From the NCBI GenBank assembly GCA_913049845.1, contig CAJWZE010000005.1, forward strand, positions 1-59,265: DNA of 59,265 nucleotides. Direction: 5' to 3'. The position numbers and the translations under genes were made by a program. This DNA is from an uncultured Cryomorphaceae bacterium. GTDB lineage: Bacteria; Bacteroidota; Bacteroidia; Flavobacteriales; Schleiferiaceae. Below, piece after piece: positions 34,734 to 49,645 of this stretch (its first letter is position 1; each line of letters opens with the position of its first letter). The notes below the pieces were generated by a model that had not been told where the DNA came from, made no database searches, and saw nothing but the letters and a program-made list of their open reading frames with translations.

Positions 34734-35453
34734 ATGCCCAAGATTATTCACGCTATTTCTGGTCCTCGCAATATTAGTACAGCACTTATGTACAGCTTCG
34801 CACAGCGACCGGGCTGCAGGGTCATTGATGAGCCAATGTACGGGATGTATTTAAAGGCATTGGATCCGAATCATCCAGGGAAAAAAGAAATTTTAGCCCA
34901 GTGGCCGACGAGTATTGAAGGGGTGAAGATGTGGGTGCGTTCTTTCGAAGAATGCGACGAGCTGTACTTAAAAAACATGGCGCATCACATGGACGGTCAA
35001 CCATGGCATTGGGTGGACCCCGATGCCTATTTATTCTGGATCAGACACCCGCGTAAGGTAGTGCAGAGTTTCACCAAAGTCATTGATACCATCAGACCAA
35101 GAGATATTGGGCTTATCGAAGAGTGGGACCAATTCCAGCAGTTGCGACGTGGCGACGTACCGATAGTGGTGGTCGATTCCGACGAGATGTTGTTAAACCC
35201 CTCTAAAAATATGACAACTATTTGTCAGGCTTTGGGACTGGCGCCGAGAGAGGAGATGATGAATTGGCTTCCGGGAAAGAAAGAATACGACGGACCTTGG
35301 TGGCCACATTGGTATGCCAAGGTTCACAAGAGTGAAGGATTTGGTCCTGCCAAGGCTATGCCTGAACTGCTTATAGAAGATCACGAGGCCATAGTTACGG
35401 CAACTTTGCCGGCGTACGAGGCACTTTATAACCAACGATTACAATTCGATTAA
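34734..35453 (+). CDS. Sulfotransferase-like P-loop protein paired with an aminotransferase
   Basis: 239 residues. The N-terminus HAISGPRNISTALMYSF (about 6-22) is a sulfotransferase-type P-loop that in true sulfotransferases holds the 5'-phosphosulfate of PAPS; a second segment YLFWIRHPRKVVQSFTK (about 98-115) matches the 3'-phosphate-binding RHPR/RxP strand. The rest is Trp-rich (PWWPHWYAK). The whole fits the sulfotransferase family typified by GPRNxSTALM proteins. No sulfate-activation gene is nearby and the substrate is unknown. Only one base separates its stop from the class IV aminotransferase gene, so the two are made together. In plants, as I recall, a related P-loop domain is fused to a branched-chain aminotransferase-like domain. 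Confidence 0.82.
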   Translation: MPKIIHAISGPRNISTALMYSFAQRPGCRVIDEPMYGMYLKALDPNHPGKKEILAQWPTSIEGVKMWVRSFEECDELYLKNMAHHMDGQPWHWVDPDAYLFWIRHPRKVVQSFTKVIDTIRPRDIGLIEEWDQFQQLRRGDVPIVVVDSDEMLLNPSKNMTTICQALGLAPREEMMNWLPGKKEYDGPWWPHWYAKVHKSEGFGPAKAMPELLIEDHEAIVTATLPAYEALYNQRLQFD

Positions 35454-35454
35454 T

Positions 35455-36363
35455 ATGCTACAACAGTTCGATCCAAGAAATAAAGAAATCCAAGTTTGGG
35501 TAGGCGACGGTTTGATTCACCGCGATTCTGCGAAGGTCAGTGTTTTCGACAGTTCGGTGCAAGGCGGCGATGCCGTTTGGGAAGGAATGCGTGTTTACAA
35601 ACACGGCGTGTATTGCCTTGAAAGACATCTCGATCGCTTGGAAGATAGCGCCCTAGCAATGGCTTTTGAAGGTGTACCGTCGCGCGAGTTTATTGGAAAA
35701 GCCATTCGTGCTACCCTTGAGGCTAATGGTATGATTGACGATACACACATTCGTTTGACCTTGACAAGGGGAGAGAAGGTGACCTCGGGGATGGACCCTC
35801 GATTGAATCAAATGGGGTGTACGCTGATTGTTTTGGCCGAATGGAAACCGCCTGTCTACGACAATGAAAAGGGTATACGAATCATCACCTCGGCCATCCG
35901 TCGAAATAGTCCGATGCATTTAGATTCGAAGATTCACCACAATAATTTGATCAATAACATCTTGGCGAAGATTCAGGCGAATCAGGCAGGAGTCGATTCT
36001 GCTTTAATGCTCGATAACCAAGGATTTATCGCAGAGATGAACGGGGCGAATATTTTTATGGTAAAAAACGGCAAGATTTTGACGCCTACCGCGGATGCTT
36101 GTTTGCACGGCATTACGCGGGGGTTGGTGTTGGAATTGGCCAGAGCGCATGATATGGTTGTGGAAGAACGCAATATCTCTTTGACTGAGCTGTATTCGGC
36201 AGACGAGGCTTTTGGCACGGGATCGATGGGAGAATTGACCCCGATTACTGAAGTGGACGGCAGATCCTTGGTAAACAGGGCAGGACCCAAGGTGACCCAA
36301 CAGCTTGTTAAAATATTTGAAGCCACCCACCAGAAGTTGAGCACTCCGGTGGCCAATTTGTAA
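35455..36363 (+). CDS. PLP-dependent class IV aminotransferase (BCAT/D-amino-acid aminotransferase-like)
   Basis: 302 residues, fold type IV. Catalytic lysine Lys159 in HLDSKIHHNNLINNIL, the phosphate-cup Glu194 in FIAEMNGANIF, and the glycine-containing loop FGTGSMGELTPI near the C-terminus. The N-terminal VWVGDGLIHRDSAKVSVFDS is typical of the family. Substrate cannot be assigned: members include branched-chain transaminases, D-alanine transaminases and 4-amino-4-deoxychorismate lyases. Its tight pairing with the sulfotransferase-like gene, not with ilv/leu or folate genes, suggests a specialised role. Confidence 0.88.
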   Translation: MLQQFDPRNKEIQVWVGDGLIHRDSAKVSVFDSSVQGGDAVWEGMRVYKHGVYCLERHLDRLEDSALAMAFEGVPSREFIGKAIRATLEANGMIDDTHIRLTLTRGEKVTSGMDPRLNQMGCTLIVLAEWKPPVYDNEKGIRIITSAIRRNSPMHLDSKIHHNNLINNILAKIQANQAGVDSALMLDNQGFIAEMNGANIFMVKNGKILTPTADACLHGITRGLVLELARAHDMVVEERNISLTELYSADEAFGTGSMGELTPITEVDGRSLVNRAGPKVTQQLVKIFEATHQKLSTPVANL

Positions 36364-40065: not shown

Positions 40066-41643
40066 TTATTCTACGAGACTATTGGGTGCGTACGGAAGAT
40101 TACATTTTTCAGCCACCTTGTCCACGATGTTGGTGACATCGACACGTTTATTGCTTTCGCCACTTTTGATACCGCTTCCCATGAGTAAGAAAGGAACATG
40201 AGTATCGTATAGATACCCTGAACCGTGCGTAGAACCATATGGACCGTAGAATATGCAGTTGGGTTGAAGGGTAAAAATGAGCTCACCGCCAAACCTGCTT
40301 TGATGGCCTTCGTGAAGCAATTCCAGTAAGGCGTCATTCGCGCTATTGCGCACTTCGGAAGCGGTATAAACACGCATGAAAGGATCAGTAGCCTCAACCA
40401 ATAACGCAATCTTATTGGCGCGTTCTTTGGCCCAGCTATTCAAGTGAATGTGGTGGTTGAAGATCTTGAATACTGCATTTTCAATACCTAGTTCTTCTTG
40501 AATACGTTCGTTAATATCTCCAATAACATCAGCATTCTGGAAATTACGCACCCCTAGACCATAATAAGCCAAGTGATTTGGATTTTCTGAAGCACCATGG
40601 TCTGCTGTTAAGTAAATGACATACGCATCACGACCTACCGCCTTGTCTAGCTTCTTAATGAGCTTGCCTAGTTGACGGTCCAATTTCAAATACATATCAT
40701 GCACTTCACGTGAGCGTACCCCAAAGGTGTGTCCGGCATAGTCAGTAGAGGAGAAGCTCACACCCAAGAAATCAGTATACTTATCCTTACCTAGTTCTTC
40801 TTTTTCTAAAAGCAACAAGGCCATATCGAGCACCAGTTCATTACCTACAGGTGTGTTCTTTAGCGACCCTAATCCGCGTGTCTGGATCAATTGCTTCAAA
40901 TCATATGGAAAGCTTGACGTACCCTTGTTCAACTTTGGCTCGTACGGATTTTCATCTGCTAAGCTTTCGTCGTATTTACGCTCAGCCATCTCTAACTTCC
41001 AATCCTTCTTTGCCATATCCATAGCATGCTCTTTCTCATTGTATTTCTCTACGTAATCTGGAAGTTCGTCGCAATAGTAGCTGCTGCTCACAAAGTGCAG
41101 CTTATTATCAAGCCAAAACGCGCCATCCGCAAAGTGACCAGCAGGGAATATAGCTCCACGATCCTTTACGCTCACACCGTAGCTCTTTCCACGGTGGTTT
41201 GTGTGTAATTTGATTCCGTCAGAAAAAGTCAATGCACGTAAGTTCTTTGGCGAACGGCGAGAGGAACTTTCAATGGTTCCAATCGGGCTGACCGTGGTAT
41301 CCTCCGCACAATACATCTCGTACTGACTCTCCTTCACCCACCAATCGTTGGCTACAATGCCGTGGTACTTTGGAGTAGTTCCTGTTGATATTGATGCGTG
41401 TCCAGGCCCTGTGTAGTTCGGAATGTAATTGTAGTGCGCGTTGCGGTACACTTTACCTTCATCAAGAAGAATACGAAATCCACCATCTTCGGCAAATTGA
41501 TGGTTAAAACGCTGCAGATATTCTGCGCGCATTTGATCAACTACTACTTGCACGACCAGTTTAGGCTGTGCCTGAACGCTTATTCCGATTAGGAGGACAA
41601 CTGCTGCTCCAACCGATCTTTTTTTATTTGAATATCTTCCCAT
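40066..41643 (-). CDS. pafA: Alkaline phosphatase PafA-type
   Basis: 525-residue periplasmic phosphomonoesterase of the alkaline phosphatase superfamily, common in Bacteroidota for phosphate scavenging. Signal segment about 10-26 (SVGAAVVLLIGISVQAQ). Active-site elements agree with the characterised PafA enzyme: Asp36 in VVVDQMRAEYL, nucleophile Thr78 in NYTGPGHASISTG, Asn99 in GIVANDWW, and a Lys-Asp-Arg triplet in GVSVKDRGAIFP (the K..R pair that marks monoesterases), plus metal ligands in LTADHGASE and YGSTHGSGY. The ATG lies inside the upstream ABC-F gene (55-base overlap). No Pho-box is visible. Confidence 0.9.
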   Translation of the reverse strand: MGRYSNKKRSVGAAVVLLIGISVQAQPKLVVQVVVDQMRAEYLQRFNHQFAEDGGFRILLDEGKVYRNAHYNYIPNYTGPGHASISTGTTPKYHGIVANDWWVKESQYEMYCAEDTTVSPIGTIESSSRRSPKNLRALTFSDGIKLHTNHRGKSYGVSVKDRGAIFPAGHFADGAFWLDNKLHFVSSSYYCDELPDYVEKYNEKEHAMDMAKKDWKLEMAERKYDESLADENPYEPKLNKGTSSFPYDLKQLIQTRGLGSLKNTPVGNELVLDMALLLLEKEELGKDKYTDFLGVSFSSTDYAGHTFGVRSREVHDMYLKLDRQLGKLIKKLDKAVGRDAYVIYLTADHGASENPNHLAYYGLGVRNFQNADVIGDINERIQEELGIENAVFKIFNHHIHLNSWAKERANKIALLVEATDPFMRVYTASEVRNSANDALLELLHEGHQSRFGGELIFTLQPNCIFYGPYGSTHGSGYLYDTHVPFLLMGSGIKSGESNKRVDVTNIVDKVAEKCNLPYAPNSLVE

Positions 41644-45934: not shown

Positions 45935-47458
45935 TTAGTTCAAGTCAATAGTAATCGGCGCAACTCTTGGCTTGATGCCTTTACCAGTTTTCGCACGAAT
46001 ATTTCTAATAATTACTGGTGTACCTGGTTTCGCTTTATCCAAAGCAGCGCGTGCGTTGGGATTTAACGTATTTCCTTTACAATCGATAGGAGCGAAGGGA
46101 GGAACAATGATTTGGAAGCTTGTTACTTTCAAAGGAAGTTCAAAGTCAAAATTATTGAACTTCGCTTCAACTTTAGCTTTCTTTATTAGGTTCGCAGACA
46201 TTAGACCTTCTGTTTTACCGAAGATAGATCCGGCAGCATCAGGAAGATTCTTCACACGAAAAAGCTTACTTCCCATATTCTTGGTCTTATCGCCTTCTCG
46301 AACACTAACAGAAATTTTTAGCTCACCACCTTTATTACGGGTCACATCAGCCATGTATCCGTTACCTGACTTCTTGACGCCTGTACCCGATACAATTAAG
46401 TTAGACGGATCAACACCAGGAACAGAAATTTCCAAAGGGTTATCTACACCGCGGTAGAGAACATTCATCTTGGTTGGAGAAATAACCACACTAGGAGGTG
46501 CAACATTAAATGTGCCTTCCACAGGGAAAACTTTCTCTTCACCGTTCTGAACCAGTTTGATTTCACCGTTCCATACAGTCTCACCCACACGATTCGCCGG
46601 GAAACGAACTTTAGCGACACCGCCAACGATATCTTCTGCGCTCAACTCTTGGCCGTTGATGGTAACTGTTGGGTTTTGTGTATCGTCAAAGGCTGCCAAG
46701 AAAACGTCGGCTTCGTACTCATCACCTTTAGTAACAAATGTGCTCTTAGGCATTACTACGGTTCTTACGCCGGTAAACTTTAAATCTGAAGCGGTAATGT
46801 TCTTTTGCAGGTAGTCAATAACATTTGCCTCAGAAGTACGAACGTCACTTTGCATTTTCGTCAAGAACGTTAATACAGAGATGAGCGGGAAGTGCTCAAA
46901 TTTGTGTTGTTCCCAACTGATGGTAGTTCCGTCGTGCTTGTAATCGCTTAAATCAAATGTTTCTTCAATAGAGTTCATCAAAAGCTCGTTGCCTTCTGCC
47001 TCTGTCTTCATGAATTCGCGGTAATCAGCAAGCGCTGCTTTAAGCTTGGCTCCATTACCCTGGTTAAGGAAATAGTTCGGTGAAGATTCCAAGTCGTCCA
47101 TTTTCTGGGGCTTGTTCGGATCCCCGCTTTCTTCATCTGCACCTCCTGAAGCTTCAATTACACCTCTCTTGAGGTCTTCAATCTGCTGGTAAAGTGTTGC
47201 TGAACGAGATTTTACGTCATTTGCTTTATCTCTCCACGGTCCAGCTTTCACTGGGTTTTCAGCAGCAGCTGCTTCAAATGCCGTGTAGATACTAGAATTT
47301 TGTTTTTCTACTGTTTCAATAGATGCCTCTTGGCTAACCATTACTTCGTAGAATGCGTCCATTACTTCTTTGCTCACGTTAAGAGCGAGAAGCGCAGTCA
47401 ACACGAGATACATCATGTTGATCATTTTCTGACGCGGTGTTAATTTTCCTCCTGCCAT
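45935..47458 (-). CDS. gldM: Type IX secretion/gliding motor protein GldM (PorM)
   Basis: 507 residues. A single N-terminal membrane helix (about 14-30, MMYLVLTALLALNVS) follows MAGGKLTPRQKM, including the conserved Arg9 that interacts with GldL. The large periplasmic part has the four-domain D1-D4 layout that spans the periplasm to GldKN and transmits rotary motion. Length and C-terminal AFINLN-like ending (PITIDLN) are normal. It is cotranslated between gldL and gldN. Confidence 0.96.
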   Translation of the reverse strand: MAGGKLTPRQKMINMMYLVLTALLALNVSKEVMDAFYEVMVSQEASIETVEKQNSSIYTAFEAAAAENPVKAGPWRDKANDVKSRSATLYQQIEDLKRGVIEASGGADEESGDPNKPQKMDDLESSPNYFLNQGNGAKLKAALADYREFMKTEAEGNELLMNSIEETFDLSDYKHDGTTISWEQHKFEHFPLISVLTFLTKMQSDVRTSEANVIDYLQKNITASDLKFTGVRTVVMPKSTFVTKGDEYEADVFLAAFDDTQNPTVTINGQELSAEDIVGGVAKVRFPANRVGETVWNGEIKLVQNGEEKVFPVEGTFNVAPPSVVISPTKMNVLYRGVDNPLEISVPGVDPSNLIVSGTGVKKSGNGYMADVTRNKGGELKISVSVREGDKTKNMGSKLFRVKNLPDAAGSIFGKTEGLMSANLIKKAKVEAKFNNFDFELPLKVTSFQIIVPPFAPIDCKGNTLNPNARAALDKAKPGTPVIIRNIRAKTGKGIKPRVAPITIDLN

Positions 47459-47506
47459 TTGTCTAGGATTTTACGGTTAAAGTAAGTTAAATTGAATCGG
47501 GTAAGA

Positions 47507-48142
47507 TTACTTGCCCATTGCAGTTAACATACCGCCGTAAACGCTATTTAATGATTCTAAGTTACCTTTCAATGAAGCCAACTCAGAAGCAAGATCAGTA
47601 GCATTGCCAGAAGCAGCAGCCAATTTTTCCATAACGTCGTTTTGACGCTCTACCTGAGCTGTAGTATTTTCAAGTTGAACAGAGTAAAGTGCATTCAAGC
47701 TTTCCATGTGCGTTGCCGCTGTGCTCAATTGCTCTGAATAGGCAGCAGTTGCACCTGCAGCATCAACGGCACCACTTAGGCTACCCGCAGTTTCACTTAA
47801 AGAACGCATACCTTCTCCTAATCTCTCGATAAGAGCAGCATCTACGCCACCATTTTCCAAAGCATTATCTAGTTGCTCTGTAACTGAAAGTGCACGATCG
47901 CCGTCTGCTGAAGCTAGTTCGGGGTAAACCAATGTCCAGTCGTAATCAGCTGCTGGTTTCTCGAATGCAGAGAACATAAAGATTACAGCCTCTGTAGTCA
48001 AACCTACAACAAGCATGATGTTCGCTCCTTGCCAGTGCATGATCTTAAACATCGCACCAGTAATTACTACTGCTGCACCAATACCATAGAGCTTCGCCAT
48101 AAAGTTTTTGAAGCGCTTTCCGTTTACATCAATTAAAGCCAT
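47507..48142 (-). CDS. gldL: Type IX secretion/gliding motor protein GldL (PorL)
   Basis: 211-residue inner-membrane protein that with GldM forms the proton-driven rotary motor. Two helices at about 14-32 and 42-60; the key acidic residue of helix 2 is Glu51 (VVGLTTEAVIFMF). The cytoplasmic C-terminal region (about 80-205) is a long helical/coiled-coil domain rich in Ala, Glu and Ser. The start (MALIDVNGKRFKNF) agrees with the family. Confidence 0.95.
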   Translation of the reverse strand: MALIDVNGKRFKNFMAKLYGIGAAVVITGAMFKIMHWQGANIMLVVGLTTEAVIFMFSAFEKPAADYDWTLVYPELASADGDRALSVTEQLDNALENGGVDAALIERLGEGMRSLSETAGSLSGAVDAAGATAAYSEQLSTAATHMESLNALYSVQLENTTAQVERQNDVMEKLAAASGNATDLASELASLKGNLESLNSVYGGMLTAMGK

Positions 48143-48181
48143 AATCTTAAAGTTAAGTTTGTTATTAGGGTTATGTTGTTA

Positions 48182-49597
48182 TTAAAAGTCTTTAAGGTCT
48201 CTACCTAAGAAACTTTGTACTGTTCTGAATCCAATGTAGCTTTTTGCCGTGTCTTGGTATTCGTAATCACGAGCACCCAGCTGAAGGAAGTAAGCTACGT
48301 CCTTCCATGATCCACCACGAATCACCTTGCGCTTCATAGTTTCATTTTCGTCTTCGTACGCATTGTACTGGAATTCAGTGGCGACATCGCTGCCGAAGGC
48401 GTAAGACTGTACATCAAACGCTGTGGATGTCCACTCACTTACGTTACCTGACATACAGTAAAGGTTATATCCGTTTGGAGAGTACGCTGTTGTTTTCACT
48501 GGGTAGAAACCACCGTCGGCAGTCAAATTACCGCGTCGCGGTTTGAAGTTAGCGAGGTAACAACCTGCACTATTCGTAGCGTAAGGACCACCCCAAGGGT
48601 ATGTAGTTAATTCTTCACCACCGCGAGCAGCGTATTCCCACTCCGCTTCTGTAGGTAGACGAAAGTCGTGCTCGATAAGTTCACCTGAACGCTTCAAATA
48701 GTCACGACGGTATTTGCCTCTCCAGTTCGCAAAGGCACGAGCCTGTCTCCAGCTTACCCCTACTACTGGATATTCATCGTACGCTGGGTGCCAGAAGTAC
48801 TTGTCGTGCATTGGCTCATTAAACGAATACGTGAAATCATGAATCCATACAAGTGTGTCCGGATATACATTAATAGTTTCTTTCTCAAAAAATGATGCAC
48901 GGTTACTTTCAGCTTTGTTGTCTTCAATAAAATCGCGGTAGCTGAACAATTCGCCATCTCCATTCTCATCCTTGTAGTCAAATTCTACACGGTTCAACTT
49001 TGACGAAGCCTTCTGCTTGTTAATCCAGTAATAGGTATAGTTCAACTGACGAGTATCCATGTGACGGTAACCCAACCACTGCTCTTCAGGTGCGAGGTAC
49101 ATAGTTTCCACAACTTCAGTGTATTCAGTCGAGGGGTAACGATTTTTGTCCCATTCTAAATACGGGTCCCAATCCAAACGACGCATCATACTATCGGGGT
49201 AGTTCAATGCTACATATTCCTGGAAATAGGTTGGATCCTCCATCTCACCAAGATCAATGTATTCGAAATCTTCAACAAGACCTTCAGCCAGACGAGTTCT
49301 TGCGATAGAATCGCGCACCCAGCTCACAAACTGACGATACTCATTATTAGTGATTTCCGTTTGATCCATGTAGAATGCAGGAATACTCACTGTTTTCGCA
49401 GGAGCGGTATATGCATACGGCACATCCTCATCGTGATTACCCATGGTAAAGCTACCTTGTGGAATATATACCATGCCGTAAGGCTCGCTAGGATACCATG
49501 TTTGACGGTCTTGAACGCCGACTAATTCGCCATGATCGTTACTTCCACAAGAAGCCAAAATGGCAACTGATACAAGTCCAAATAGGAGCTTTTTCAT
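48182..49597 (-). CDS. gldK: Type IX secretion/gliding lipoprotein GldK (PorK)
   Basis: 471 residues from ATG 49597 (MKKLLFGLVSVAILASCGSN; lipobox LASC, Cys17); the in-frame ATG at 49627 would place ten polar residues before the signal. Formylglycine-generating-enzyme/sulfatase-modifying fold (IPQGSFTMGNHDEDVPY, RLPTEAEWEYAARGG, YCMSGNVSEWTST, VIRGGSWKD), which in GldK is structural and not catalytic. It forms the outer-membrane ring with GldN. It is preceded by the porP/sprF-like gene 48 bases away. Confidence 0.95.
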   Translation of the reverse strand: MKKLLFGLVSVAILASCGSNDHGELVGVQDRQTWYPSEPYGMVYIPQGSFTMGNHDEDVPYAYTAPAKTVSIPAFYMDQTEITNNEYRQFVSWVRDSIARTRLAEGLVEDFEYIDLGEMEDPTYFQEYVALNYPDSMMRRLDWDPYLEWDKNRYPSTEYTEVVETMYLAPEEQWLGYRHMDTRQLNYTYYWINKQKASSKLNRVEFDYKDENGDGELFSYRDFIEDNKAESNRASFFEKETINVYPDTLVWIHDFTYSFNEPMHDKYFWHPAYDEYPVVGVSWRQARAFANWRGKYRRDYLKRSGELIEHDFRLPTEAEWEYAARGGEELTTYPWGGPYATNSAGCYLANFKPRRGNLTADGGFYPVKTTAYSPNGYNLYCMSGNVSEWTSTAFDVQSYAFGSDVATEFQYNAYEDENETMKRKVIRGGSWKDVAYFLQLGARDYEYQDTAKSYIGFRTVQSFLGRDLKDF

Positions 49598-49645
49598 AAC
49601 TGTATTTGCTTTCAACTGTGTTCTCATTTTTAGTAAGGGACTATA

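What the first reader, a model, noticed from the sequence alone, without database searches (positions are those of the whole stretch)
34734..36363. Sulfotransferase-like protein coupled to a class IV aminotransferase: a possible undescribed small-molecule pathway
The stop of the P-loop protein and the start of the aminotransferase are separated by one base, and no amino-acid-biosynthesis or sulfate-activation gene lies beside them. In plants, from general knowledge, a related sulfotransferase-type domain is fused to a BCAT-like domain in one protein. A bacterial gene pair and a plant fusion point to physically or metabolically linked partners whose reaction is not known to me. The P-loop GPRNIST and RHPRKVV segment are compatible with PAPS or another nucleotide.
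Basis: partly seen in the sequence, partly recalled or inferred. Interest (0 to 1): 0.65.

Follow-up and report, generated by a model that had tools for sequence, protein, structure and literature searches.

The report
Sulfotransferase paired with lysine-less aminotransferase-like protein
Two adjacent genes, one for a sulfate-transferring enzyme and one for a relative of amino-acid transaminases that has lost the catalytic residue of that reaction, occur together in scattered Bacteroidota, which points to an undescribed small-molecule reaction rather than ordinary amino-acid synthesis.

Summary
The gene pair is real: a 239-aa sulfotransferase (ST, PF19798) and a 302-aa class IV aminotransferase-like protein (AT), one base apart. 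In two samples of Bacteroidota, all 71 genomes with a full-length ST also carry the AT. The genes are same-strand neighbours in 68 of 71, in either order, and fused in one. In the 296-genome sample the AT occurs in 41 of 41 ST carriers and 5 of 255 others. The ST models as a PAPS-type sulfotransferase, nearest CurM, which is reported to sulfate a hydroxyl ahead of elimination. APS kinase is present in 40 of 41 ST carriers. It has His161 there, or Asn in a sister group, at the site where the closest crystallised protein (7z79, Variovorax) has Asn174. The lysine-less proteins form one clade in my tree. So the AT is not an ordinary IlvE and probably not a transaminase. Best reading: the ST sulfates an amino-acid-like hydroxy compound and the AT-like protein carries out a non-transaminating step on it, perhaps sulfate elimination. 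Substrate and chemistry are inferred. Ten paper searches gave me no description of the pair.

The parts
34734..35453 (+). Sulfotransferase gene (ST), PF19798, 239 aa
   Evidence: ORF; Pfam 143.6 bits; AF2 model pLDDT 93.7, pTM 0.90; best folds CurM/Ols sulfotransferases Z 14.9
34758..34784 (+). SGPRNISTA, residues 9-17: P-loop / 5'-phosphosulfate-binding segment (role recalled for sulfotransferases)
   Evidence: R12, N13, S15, T16, A17 invariant in 54 rows and in the 41 rows of A3
34827..34835 (+). D32-E33-P34, invariant; E33 is a candidate catalytic base by recalled analogy with TPST/3-OST enzymes
   Evidence: invariant; role is inference
34971..34988 (+). K80-N-M82-A-H84-H85, invariant K, M, H, H after a core strand: candidate active-site residues
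   Evidence: invariant; strand 76-82 in the model
35043..35069 (+). R104-H-P106-RKVVQ-S112: 3'-phosphate-binding type segment (role recalled)
   Evidence: R104, P106, S112 invariant
35455..36363 (+). Lysine-less class IV aminotransferase-like protein (AT), 302 aa
   Evidence: ORF; PF01063 166.2 bits; nearest PDB sequence 7z79
35935..35937 (+). Codon of His161, at the position of the catalytic Schiff-base lysine of class IV aminotransferases
   Evidence: local alignment to archaeal BCATs; same column as N174 of 7z79, which the depositors mutated to K in 9j32; column is K in 13 of 14 comparison rows (the fourteenth, L003, has its K one column off)
35590..35592 (+). Arg46, kept (PLP phosphate site in BCATs, role recalled)
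   Evidence: invariant in the 61 rows of A5
36034..36036 (+). Glu194, kept in the H type, Thr/Ser in the N type (pyridine-N contact in BCATs, role recalled)
36109..36120 (+). GITR, residues 219-222, kept (PLP phosphate cup, role recalled)
   Evidence: G219 and R222 invariant, T221 at least 90%

Best explanation
The pair encodes a two-protein module that acts on one small molecule. SHOWN by computation: the first protein has the predicted fold and conserved segments of a PAPS-dependent sulfotransferase; the second is a fold-type-IV aminotransferase relative that has lost the Schiff-base lysine (His161 here); the two occur together and are kept adjacent across the Bacteroidota sampled. INFERRED: the sulfotransferase moves sulfate from PAPS to a hydroxyl of a small amino-acid-like compound. 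The aminotransferase-like protein, with PLP or PMP held without a covalent lysine bond, or with an emptied PLP site, then carries out a step on the same molecule that is not transamination. The likeliest step is removal of the sulfate as a leaving group (elimination), because CurM, one of the two nearest sulfotransferases of solved structure, installs sulfate for that purpose, and because lysine-less relatives without an adjacent sulfotransferase sit beside amino-acid importers.
For: Pairing: AT in 71 of 71 ST genomes, same-strand neighbours in 68 of 71, median gap 2 bp (ST-AT order, 42 unfused) or 66 bp (AT-ST order, 23); 41 of 41 against 5 of 255 in the phylum sample, Fisher p 4e-45, not corrected for kinship. 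Two genomes with only an apparent ST remnant, G108 and G325, have no AT orthologue. In-frame fusion in L013. STs partnered with N-type ATs form one clade, 100/97. PAPS: best Foldseek and VIA-align hits are sulfotransferases, CurM/Ols Z 14.9; the family profile finds CurM ST at 1.6e-7 and Ols ST at 5.4e-7; APS kinase in 40 of 41. Lysine loss: 81 of 81 AT rows carry a His-type (56) or Asn-type (25) segment (columns); the N174K mutant deposit fixes the register; one clade, 100/96. Leaving-group role of CurM ST: passage of PMC6274090. Lysine-less relatives beside amino-acid transporters.
Against: No substrate, product or activity is known to me for either protein. No third gene family is widely shared beside the pair, so the neighbourhood does not name a pathway. 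The AT occurs without the ST in 5 of 296 Bacteroidota, and without an adjacent ST in the ten plasmid stretches read, so it seems to have a function that does not need sulfation in cis. N-type members have also lost Glu194, so PLP binding itself is open. One ST genome, G119, shows no APS kinase. CurM and Ols are only 14 and 19% identical in the structural alignment, so the elimination theme is an analogy. The APS kinase association may partly reflect shared ancestry or ecology; three of the five AT-only genomes (G183, G239, G242) have an APS kinase too. The 71 genomes include many near relatives.
Confidence: 0.45

Rival explanations
1. The AT-like protein is a catalytically dead partner that binds the substrate or a PLP-like ligand and presents it to, or regulates, the sulfotransferase; the only reaction is sulfation and the sulfate ester is the product.
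For: No lysine in any of 81 AT rows inspected; tight gene coupling and a fusion; N-type members have also lost Glu194.
Against: The AT occurs without an adjacent ST beside amino-acid permease and ABC transporter genes, so it seems to have a job of its own; 40 AT positions are invariant over 61 H- and N-type rows, more than a decaying scaffold would need; the AT is better conserved than the ST in the five nearest loci L004-L008, 86-94% against 73-86%.
Confidence: 0.25
2. The pair makes a sulfonate: the AT-like protein forms or holds an enamine or enol of an amino or keto acid, and the ST sulfonates its carbon with PAPS to give a cysteate-type product (the PAPS:2-aminoacrylate route to taurine proposed long ago; recalled).
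For: PAPS-type ST fold and APS kinase co-occurrence; PLP-type fold partner; a fusion would suit handing over a short-lived enamine.
Against: The nearest STs with solved structures act on oxygen (CurM, the others recalled); no cysteate or taurine gene family is shared nearby; the search for the enzyme name found no paper.
Confidence: 0.15
3. Ordinary IlvE-type branched-chain aminotransferase with an accidental sulfotransferase neighbour.
For: PF01063 and 220.9 bits to ilvE_I.
Against: Below the ilvE_I cut-off of 245.55; no catalytic lysine; the genome has another class IV protein, L003, that I read as IlvE and that keeps a lysine; the association with ST is complete in 71 genomes.
Confidence: 0.03

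Closest known systems
Aminotransferase-like protein of Variovorax paradoxus (PDB 7z79; N174K mutant 9j32)
   Same: Nearest PDB sequence for the AT and nearest structure for the AT half of the fusion model; catalytic lysine absent at the homologous position. A plasmid-borne member of the lysine-less clade, L089, matches it at 1.2e-91; 7z79 itself was not put in the tree.
   Different: It has Asn, the window protein has His161 and keeps Glu194. In the ten lysine-less plasmid relatives read, no sulfotransferase is annotated in the stretch. Its function is not known to me; no paper on it was found in the held library.
CurM and olefin-synthase (Ols) sulfotransferase domains (PDB 4gbm, 4gox)
   Same: Best profile and structural matches to the ST.
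   Different: CurM ST is a domain next to a thioesterase (Ols the same by recall); the window ST is a free 239-aa protein with a transaminase-fold partner.
Class IV branched-chain aminotransferases (IlvE; archaeal 5cm0, 5e25, 5mqz)
   Same: Same fold and family, 38-41% identical to the aligned part of the fusion model; phosphate-cup residues kept.
   Different: Schiff-base lysine and a nearby Tyr replaced.
[quoted passage not shown]
   Different: Not tested here: no plant sequences are held. Twelve papers use the name; passages of two give no domains or function of this protein, the other ten were seen as listings only.

Membership tests
PAPS-dependent sulfotransferase superfamily (PF19798) | Profile match over the curated cut-off | tested here: met
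   143.6 against 23.2 bits
PAPS-dependent sulfotransferase superfamily (PF19798) | Sulfotransferase fold | tested here: met
   Predicted model: sulfotransferases fill the first ten Foldseek ranks; VIA Z 14.9 to 4gbm and 4gox, rmsd 4.1 and 3.6, 221 and 213 aligned
PAPS-dependent sulfotransferase superfamily (PF19798) | Conserved 5'-phosphosulfate and 3'-phosphate segments (motif roles recalled) | tested here: met
   R12, S15, T16, R104, S112 invariant
PAPS-dependent sulfotransferase superfamily (PF19798) | PAPS binding and sulfate transfer | not testable with these tools
   Indirect support only: APS kinase in 40 of 41 carriers
Branched-chain aminotransferase IlvE | Score over the equivalog cut-off | tested here: not met
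   ilvE_I 220.9 against 245.55; the other 23 NCBIfam models listed are under their cut-offs too
Branched-chain aminotransferase IlvE | Schiff-base lysine | tested here: not met
   His161 at that column
Branched-chain aminotransferase IlvE | Branched-chain biosynthesis neighbourhood (usual, not strictly required) | tested here: not met
   none among the 13 window neighbours scanned or the shared ORF clusters
Lysine-less aminotransferase-like proteins (7z79 kind) | Catalytic lysine replaced, single clade | tested here: met
   55 rows on one side of a branch, 100/96; 7z79 not itself in the tree
Lysine-less aminotransferase-like proteins (7z79 kind) | PLP binding or activity | not testable with these tools
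   ligand content of 7z79 and 9j32 not available here
Plant ST-AT fusion proteins | Both domains in one chain in a plant | not tested
   no plant sequences in the collections
CurM/Ols leaving-group sulfotransferases | Sulfate is eliminated in the next step | not testable with these tools
   analogy

The most novel reading that the evidence does not exclude
A two-enzyme activation and elimination system for free amino-acid-type metabolites: a PAPS sulfotransferase turns a hydroxyl into a sulfate leaving group, and a lysine-less fold-type-IV PLP protein, with His161 or Asn where the Schiff-base lysine was, eliminates it without internal aldimine chemistry. The same lysine-less proteins in other bacteria would act on imported amino acids that already carry a leaving group (four of the ten plasmid relatives read have a chloride channel gene in the stretch). 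The fusion would be the same machine in one chain, possibly shared with plants and marine animals.
Probability: 0.17. Interest if true: 0.87.

Novelty: new variant of a known kind. Interest (0 to 1): 0.62.

Why it matters
Transaminase-fold proteins without the Schiff-base lysine are, as far as I know, rare and poorly understood. A conserved sulfotransferase partner gives a handle on what at least one clade of them does: the substrate should be something that can be sulfated. If the plant and invertebrate proteins prove to be the same system, the reaction is widespread, and genes now labelled branched-chain aminotransferase-like are mis-annotated. The pair is small and testable with PAPS and metabolite profiling.

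Tried and rejected
Ordinary IlvE with a chance neighbour: rejected by the lysine and by 71 of 71 co-occurrence. Kinase or GTP-binding P-loop protein: adenylate-kinase-like chains (Fap7, adenylate kinase) appear in the Foldseek list from rank 11 on, mixed among further sulfotransferases, after ten sulfotransferase chains. A longer conserved cluster: among ORFs of 100 aa or more in 54 loci, clusters found in three or more families were the pair itself, three clusters antisense to the AT, and two others seen in 9 and 6 loci (some loci have short flanks). Other class IV genes near the pair: only L057 showed a second, distant one. Virus-borne copies: a scan of viral contigs matched 14 stretches by pattern, none a relative. 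Plasmids: 2 of 72,556 records hold a distant ST relative, 25% identical. PDB search with the single ST sequence gave mostly antibody chains at E 0.016 or worse; the profile search was needed. Alignment A2 (130 rows) mixed ST rows into the AT half and was discarded; A4 replaced it. The fusion model has pTM 0.61 and low confidence at 187-211 and 247-252, so I draw nothing from the relative placement of its domains. Literature: ten searches gave no description of the pair, of a function for PF19798, or of 7z79; most of the papers they listed were not opened.

Rows dropped before counts. G108 (61-residue ST match) and G147 (under cut-off). G325 (46-residue match with a stop); G000 and G226 were already counted., row types: L014 and L097 (contig ends before the site), L013/L101 (fusion, KIHH seen), L099, L106, L127 (repeats), and L108 (AT frame under 250 residues; KIHH seen). 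L003 was left out of the tree: its lysine falls one column off in the alignment. The site's own columns were not left out of that tree. The 13 genome-contig loci were not added to the 71 because some are the same genomes (L101 is contained in L013; L106 and L006 match alike). The figure of 105 of 296 genomes with an APS kinase was counted by eye from the list (E under 1e-30). The AT match of G125 (36% identity, E 7.6e-38), the next below the 46, was not examined for its lysine. The 12 plasmid AT relatives read (10 lysine-less, 2 with lysine) were chosen by me from the 40 listed of 250 records, not drawn at random.

Full report
1. The observation. ORFs of 239 and 302 codons lie at 34734-35453 and 35455-36363 on the + strand, one base apart. 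The first matches PF19798 (Sulfotransfer_5, 143.6 bits) and no NCBIfam model. The second matches PF01063 (166.2 bits); all 24 NCBIfam models listed for it are under their cut-offs, ilvE_I with 220.9 against 245.55. The gene after the pair encodes a thioredoxin-like (AhpC/TSA) protein, and the gene before it, on the other strand, an acyltransferase. Neither is among the ORF clusters shared by three or more families around the pair.

2. The pair across Bacteroidota. A sample of 296 genomes of the phylum holds 41 with a full-length ST, one each, the window's genome included. In 39 of the 41 the AT lies next to it on the same strand. In the other two, G231 and G203, the AT is elsewhere in the genome. 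A sample of 196 genomes of the order adds 30 further carriers; 29 have the AT beside the ST (in one, L097, only its first 78 residues are on the contig), and the thirtieth, G419, has it elsewhere. In all: AT in 71 of 71, same-strand neighbours in 68 of 71. Of the 68, one (L047) has a 985-bp gap holding an opposite-strand ORF; the other gaps measured are at most 136 bp. Many of the 71 are near relatives.

The AT was sought in the same 296 genomes: 46 have a match at E 7.4e-45 or better, and the next is 7.6e-38. All 41 ST carriers are among the 46; the five others belong to one family (f30), and in one of them (G293) the AT is cut by the contig end. Fisher p is 4e-45, without correction for kinship. 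Two genomes with only an apparent ST remnant, G108 and G325, have no AT orthologue, and neither do the 12 other ST-less relatives searched.

Order is ST-AT in 43 (one of them the fusion) and AT-ST in 23 of the 66 loci measured. AT-ST is the order of all 23 linked N-type loci and of no H-type locus. In one Cryomorphaceae MAG (L013; L101 is the same DNA) the two are one 517-aa ORF with both Pfam domains. It is a single assembly, so an artefact is not excluded. In a tree of 74 STs, the 23 partnered with N-type ATs form one clade (100/97), although one bacterial family, f24, holds both types. The genes therefore seem to travel as a unit.

3. The first protein is a sulfotransferase. The AlphaFold2 model of the window ST has pLDDT 93.7 and pTM 0.90. 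Sulfotransferases fill the first ten Foldseek ranks, and VIA-align gives Z 14.9 for CurM (4gbm) and Ols (4gox) and 14.7 for human TPST1. The family profile finds CurM at 1.6e-7 and Ols at 5.4e-7 in the PDB. R12, S15, T16, E33, K80, H84, H85, R104 and S112 are invariant; their roles in PAPS binding or catalysis are recalled or inferred. APS kinase (PF01583, E 1.3e-53 or better) is present in 40 of 41 carriers, the window's genome included; G119 has no match. In the whole sample about 105 of 296 have one at E under 1e-30 (counted by eye), so 65 of 255 non-carriers; Fisher p 9e-20, again not corrected for kinship. Three of the five AT-only genomes have an APS kinase as well, so the enzyme does not track the ST alone. 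CurM ST sulfates a beta-hydroxyl before a decarboxylative elimination (passage of PMC6274090).

4. The second protein is not a normal aminotransferase. In the local alignment to archaeal branched-chain aminotransferases the window reads KIHHNNLINNILAK where they read NIKSLNYLNNILAK: the Schiff-base lysine is His161. The nearest PDB entry, 7z79, is titled aminotransferase-like protein from Variovorax paradoxus, and 9j32 is its mutant N174K. Counting along the alignment, residue 161 of the window protein falls on 174 of that chain, and the two PDB sequences differ there (N, K), so the depositors put a lysine at this place. Among 81 AT rows inspected, 56 have the His segment (KIHH or KIHS) and 25 the Asn segment (RLNC or similar); none is of another type (columns). 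Of 14 comparison rows, 13 have Lys at the column, among them the genome's own L002 (which I read as PabC-like) and two plasmid proteins of IlvE type; the fourteenth, the genome's L003 (which I read as IlvE), has a lysine that the aligner places one column off. The ten lysine-less plasmid relatives from Pseudomonadota have Asn. A tree puts all 55 lysine-less rows on one side of a branch (100/96), next to the two IlvE-type plasmid rows; the site's columns were left in, and the long K-type branches deeper in that tree are unsure. Residues of the phosphate cup stay conserved (R46, G219, R222). Glu194 stays in the H type but is Thr or Ser in the N type.

5. What AT-only relatives suggest. In four of the five f30 genomes with an AT and no ST (L137, L138, L139 H-type; L141 H-like, its AT cut off before the site) an amino acid permease gene lies directly upstream. 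Pfam was run on two of these permeases; the other two match at 70-79% identity. No match to it was found in the 70 ST loci fetched, whose flanks run from about 0.5 to 8 kb. The fifth (L140, N type) does not have it. Of ten lysine-less plasmid relatives read, nine have amino-acid or branched-chain ABC transporter genes in the stretch and one (L144) a TRAP binding protein. Four (L093, L144, L145, L150) have an annotated chloride channel gene, and others have ornithine cyclodeaminase, proC or MmgE/PrpD genes. No ST is annotated in those stretches; the rest of those genomes was not searched. In L047 the neighbours are an aminopeptidase P and an APH-M23-aminotransferase III protein. All this points to amino-acid-like substrates.

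6. Mechanism. Shown by computation: a PAPS-type sulfotransferase with its conserved residues, a lysine-less transaminase-fold partner, and complete co-occurrence in the samples. Inferred: both act on one hydroxylated amino-acid-like molecule, and the partner's step is not transamination. Most speculative: that the step is elimination of the sulfate. Rivals are a non-catalytic partner (0.25) and carbon sulfonation to a cysteate-type product (0.15).

7. Literature and novelty. Ten searches gave no description of the pair. Papers seen by passages only: PMC6274090, PMC12506393 (uses PF19798 as one of nine search models for plant sulfotransferases; the word aminotransferase was not found in its main text), PMC11625862 (lists PF19798; [quoted passage not shown]). 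Other papers, ten of the twelve among them, were seen as listings. The library lacks most subscription journals, so novelty is provisional. The plant fusion rests on recall. Each protein family is known; the module and its link to a lysine-less clade appear undescribed, hence a new variant of a known kind.

Noticed in passing
L137, L138, L139, L141 (about 6.7-8.3 kb in each): In AT-only genomes of one Bacteroidota family an amino acid permease gene lies directly upstream of the AT, 4 of 5 such genomes (not L140).
   Followed up: yes
L093, L144, L145, L150: Lysine-less AT relatives on plasmids of Pseudomonadota lie near chloride channel genes and transport genes; possibly release of a chloride leaving group.
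   Followed up: partly
L094:4974-6902: A plasmid sulfotransferase distantly related to the window ST (25% identity) sits close to an adenylyl-sulfate kinase gene (cysC) in a Dolichospermum MAG, further circumstantial support for PAPS use.
   Followed up: no
L047:8747-11800: A three-domain ORF (APH kinase, M23 peptidase, class III aminotransferase) beside an ST with a separated AT.
   Followed up: partly
L108:2031-2855: The AT frame in this genome may be interrupted: the open frame I took ends early although the homology runs on to residue 276.
   Followed up: no
window 45935-49627 (-): GldM with a formylglycine-generating-enzyme-like (FGE-sulfatase domain) protein nearby, as in gliding or type IX secretion gene clusters (cluster assignment recalled).
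   Followed up: no
window 40066-41643 (-): Phosphodiesterase-like protein (PF01663) whose start overlaps the end of a gene for a two-domain ABC ATPase (PF00005, PF12848).
   Followed up: no
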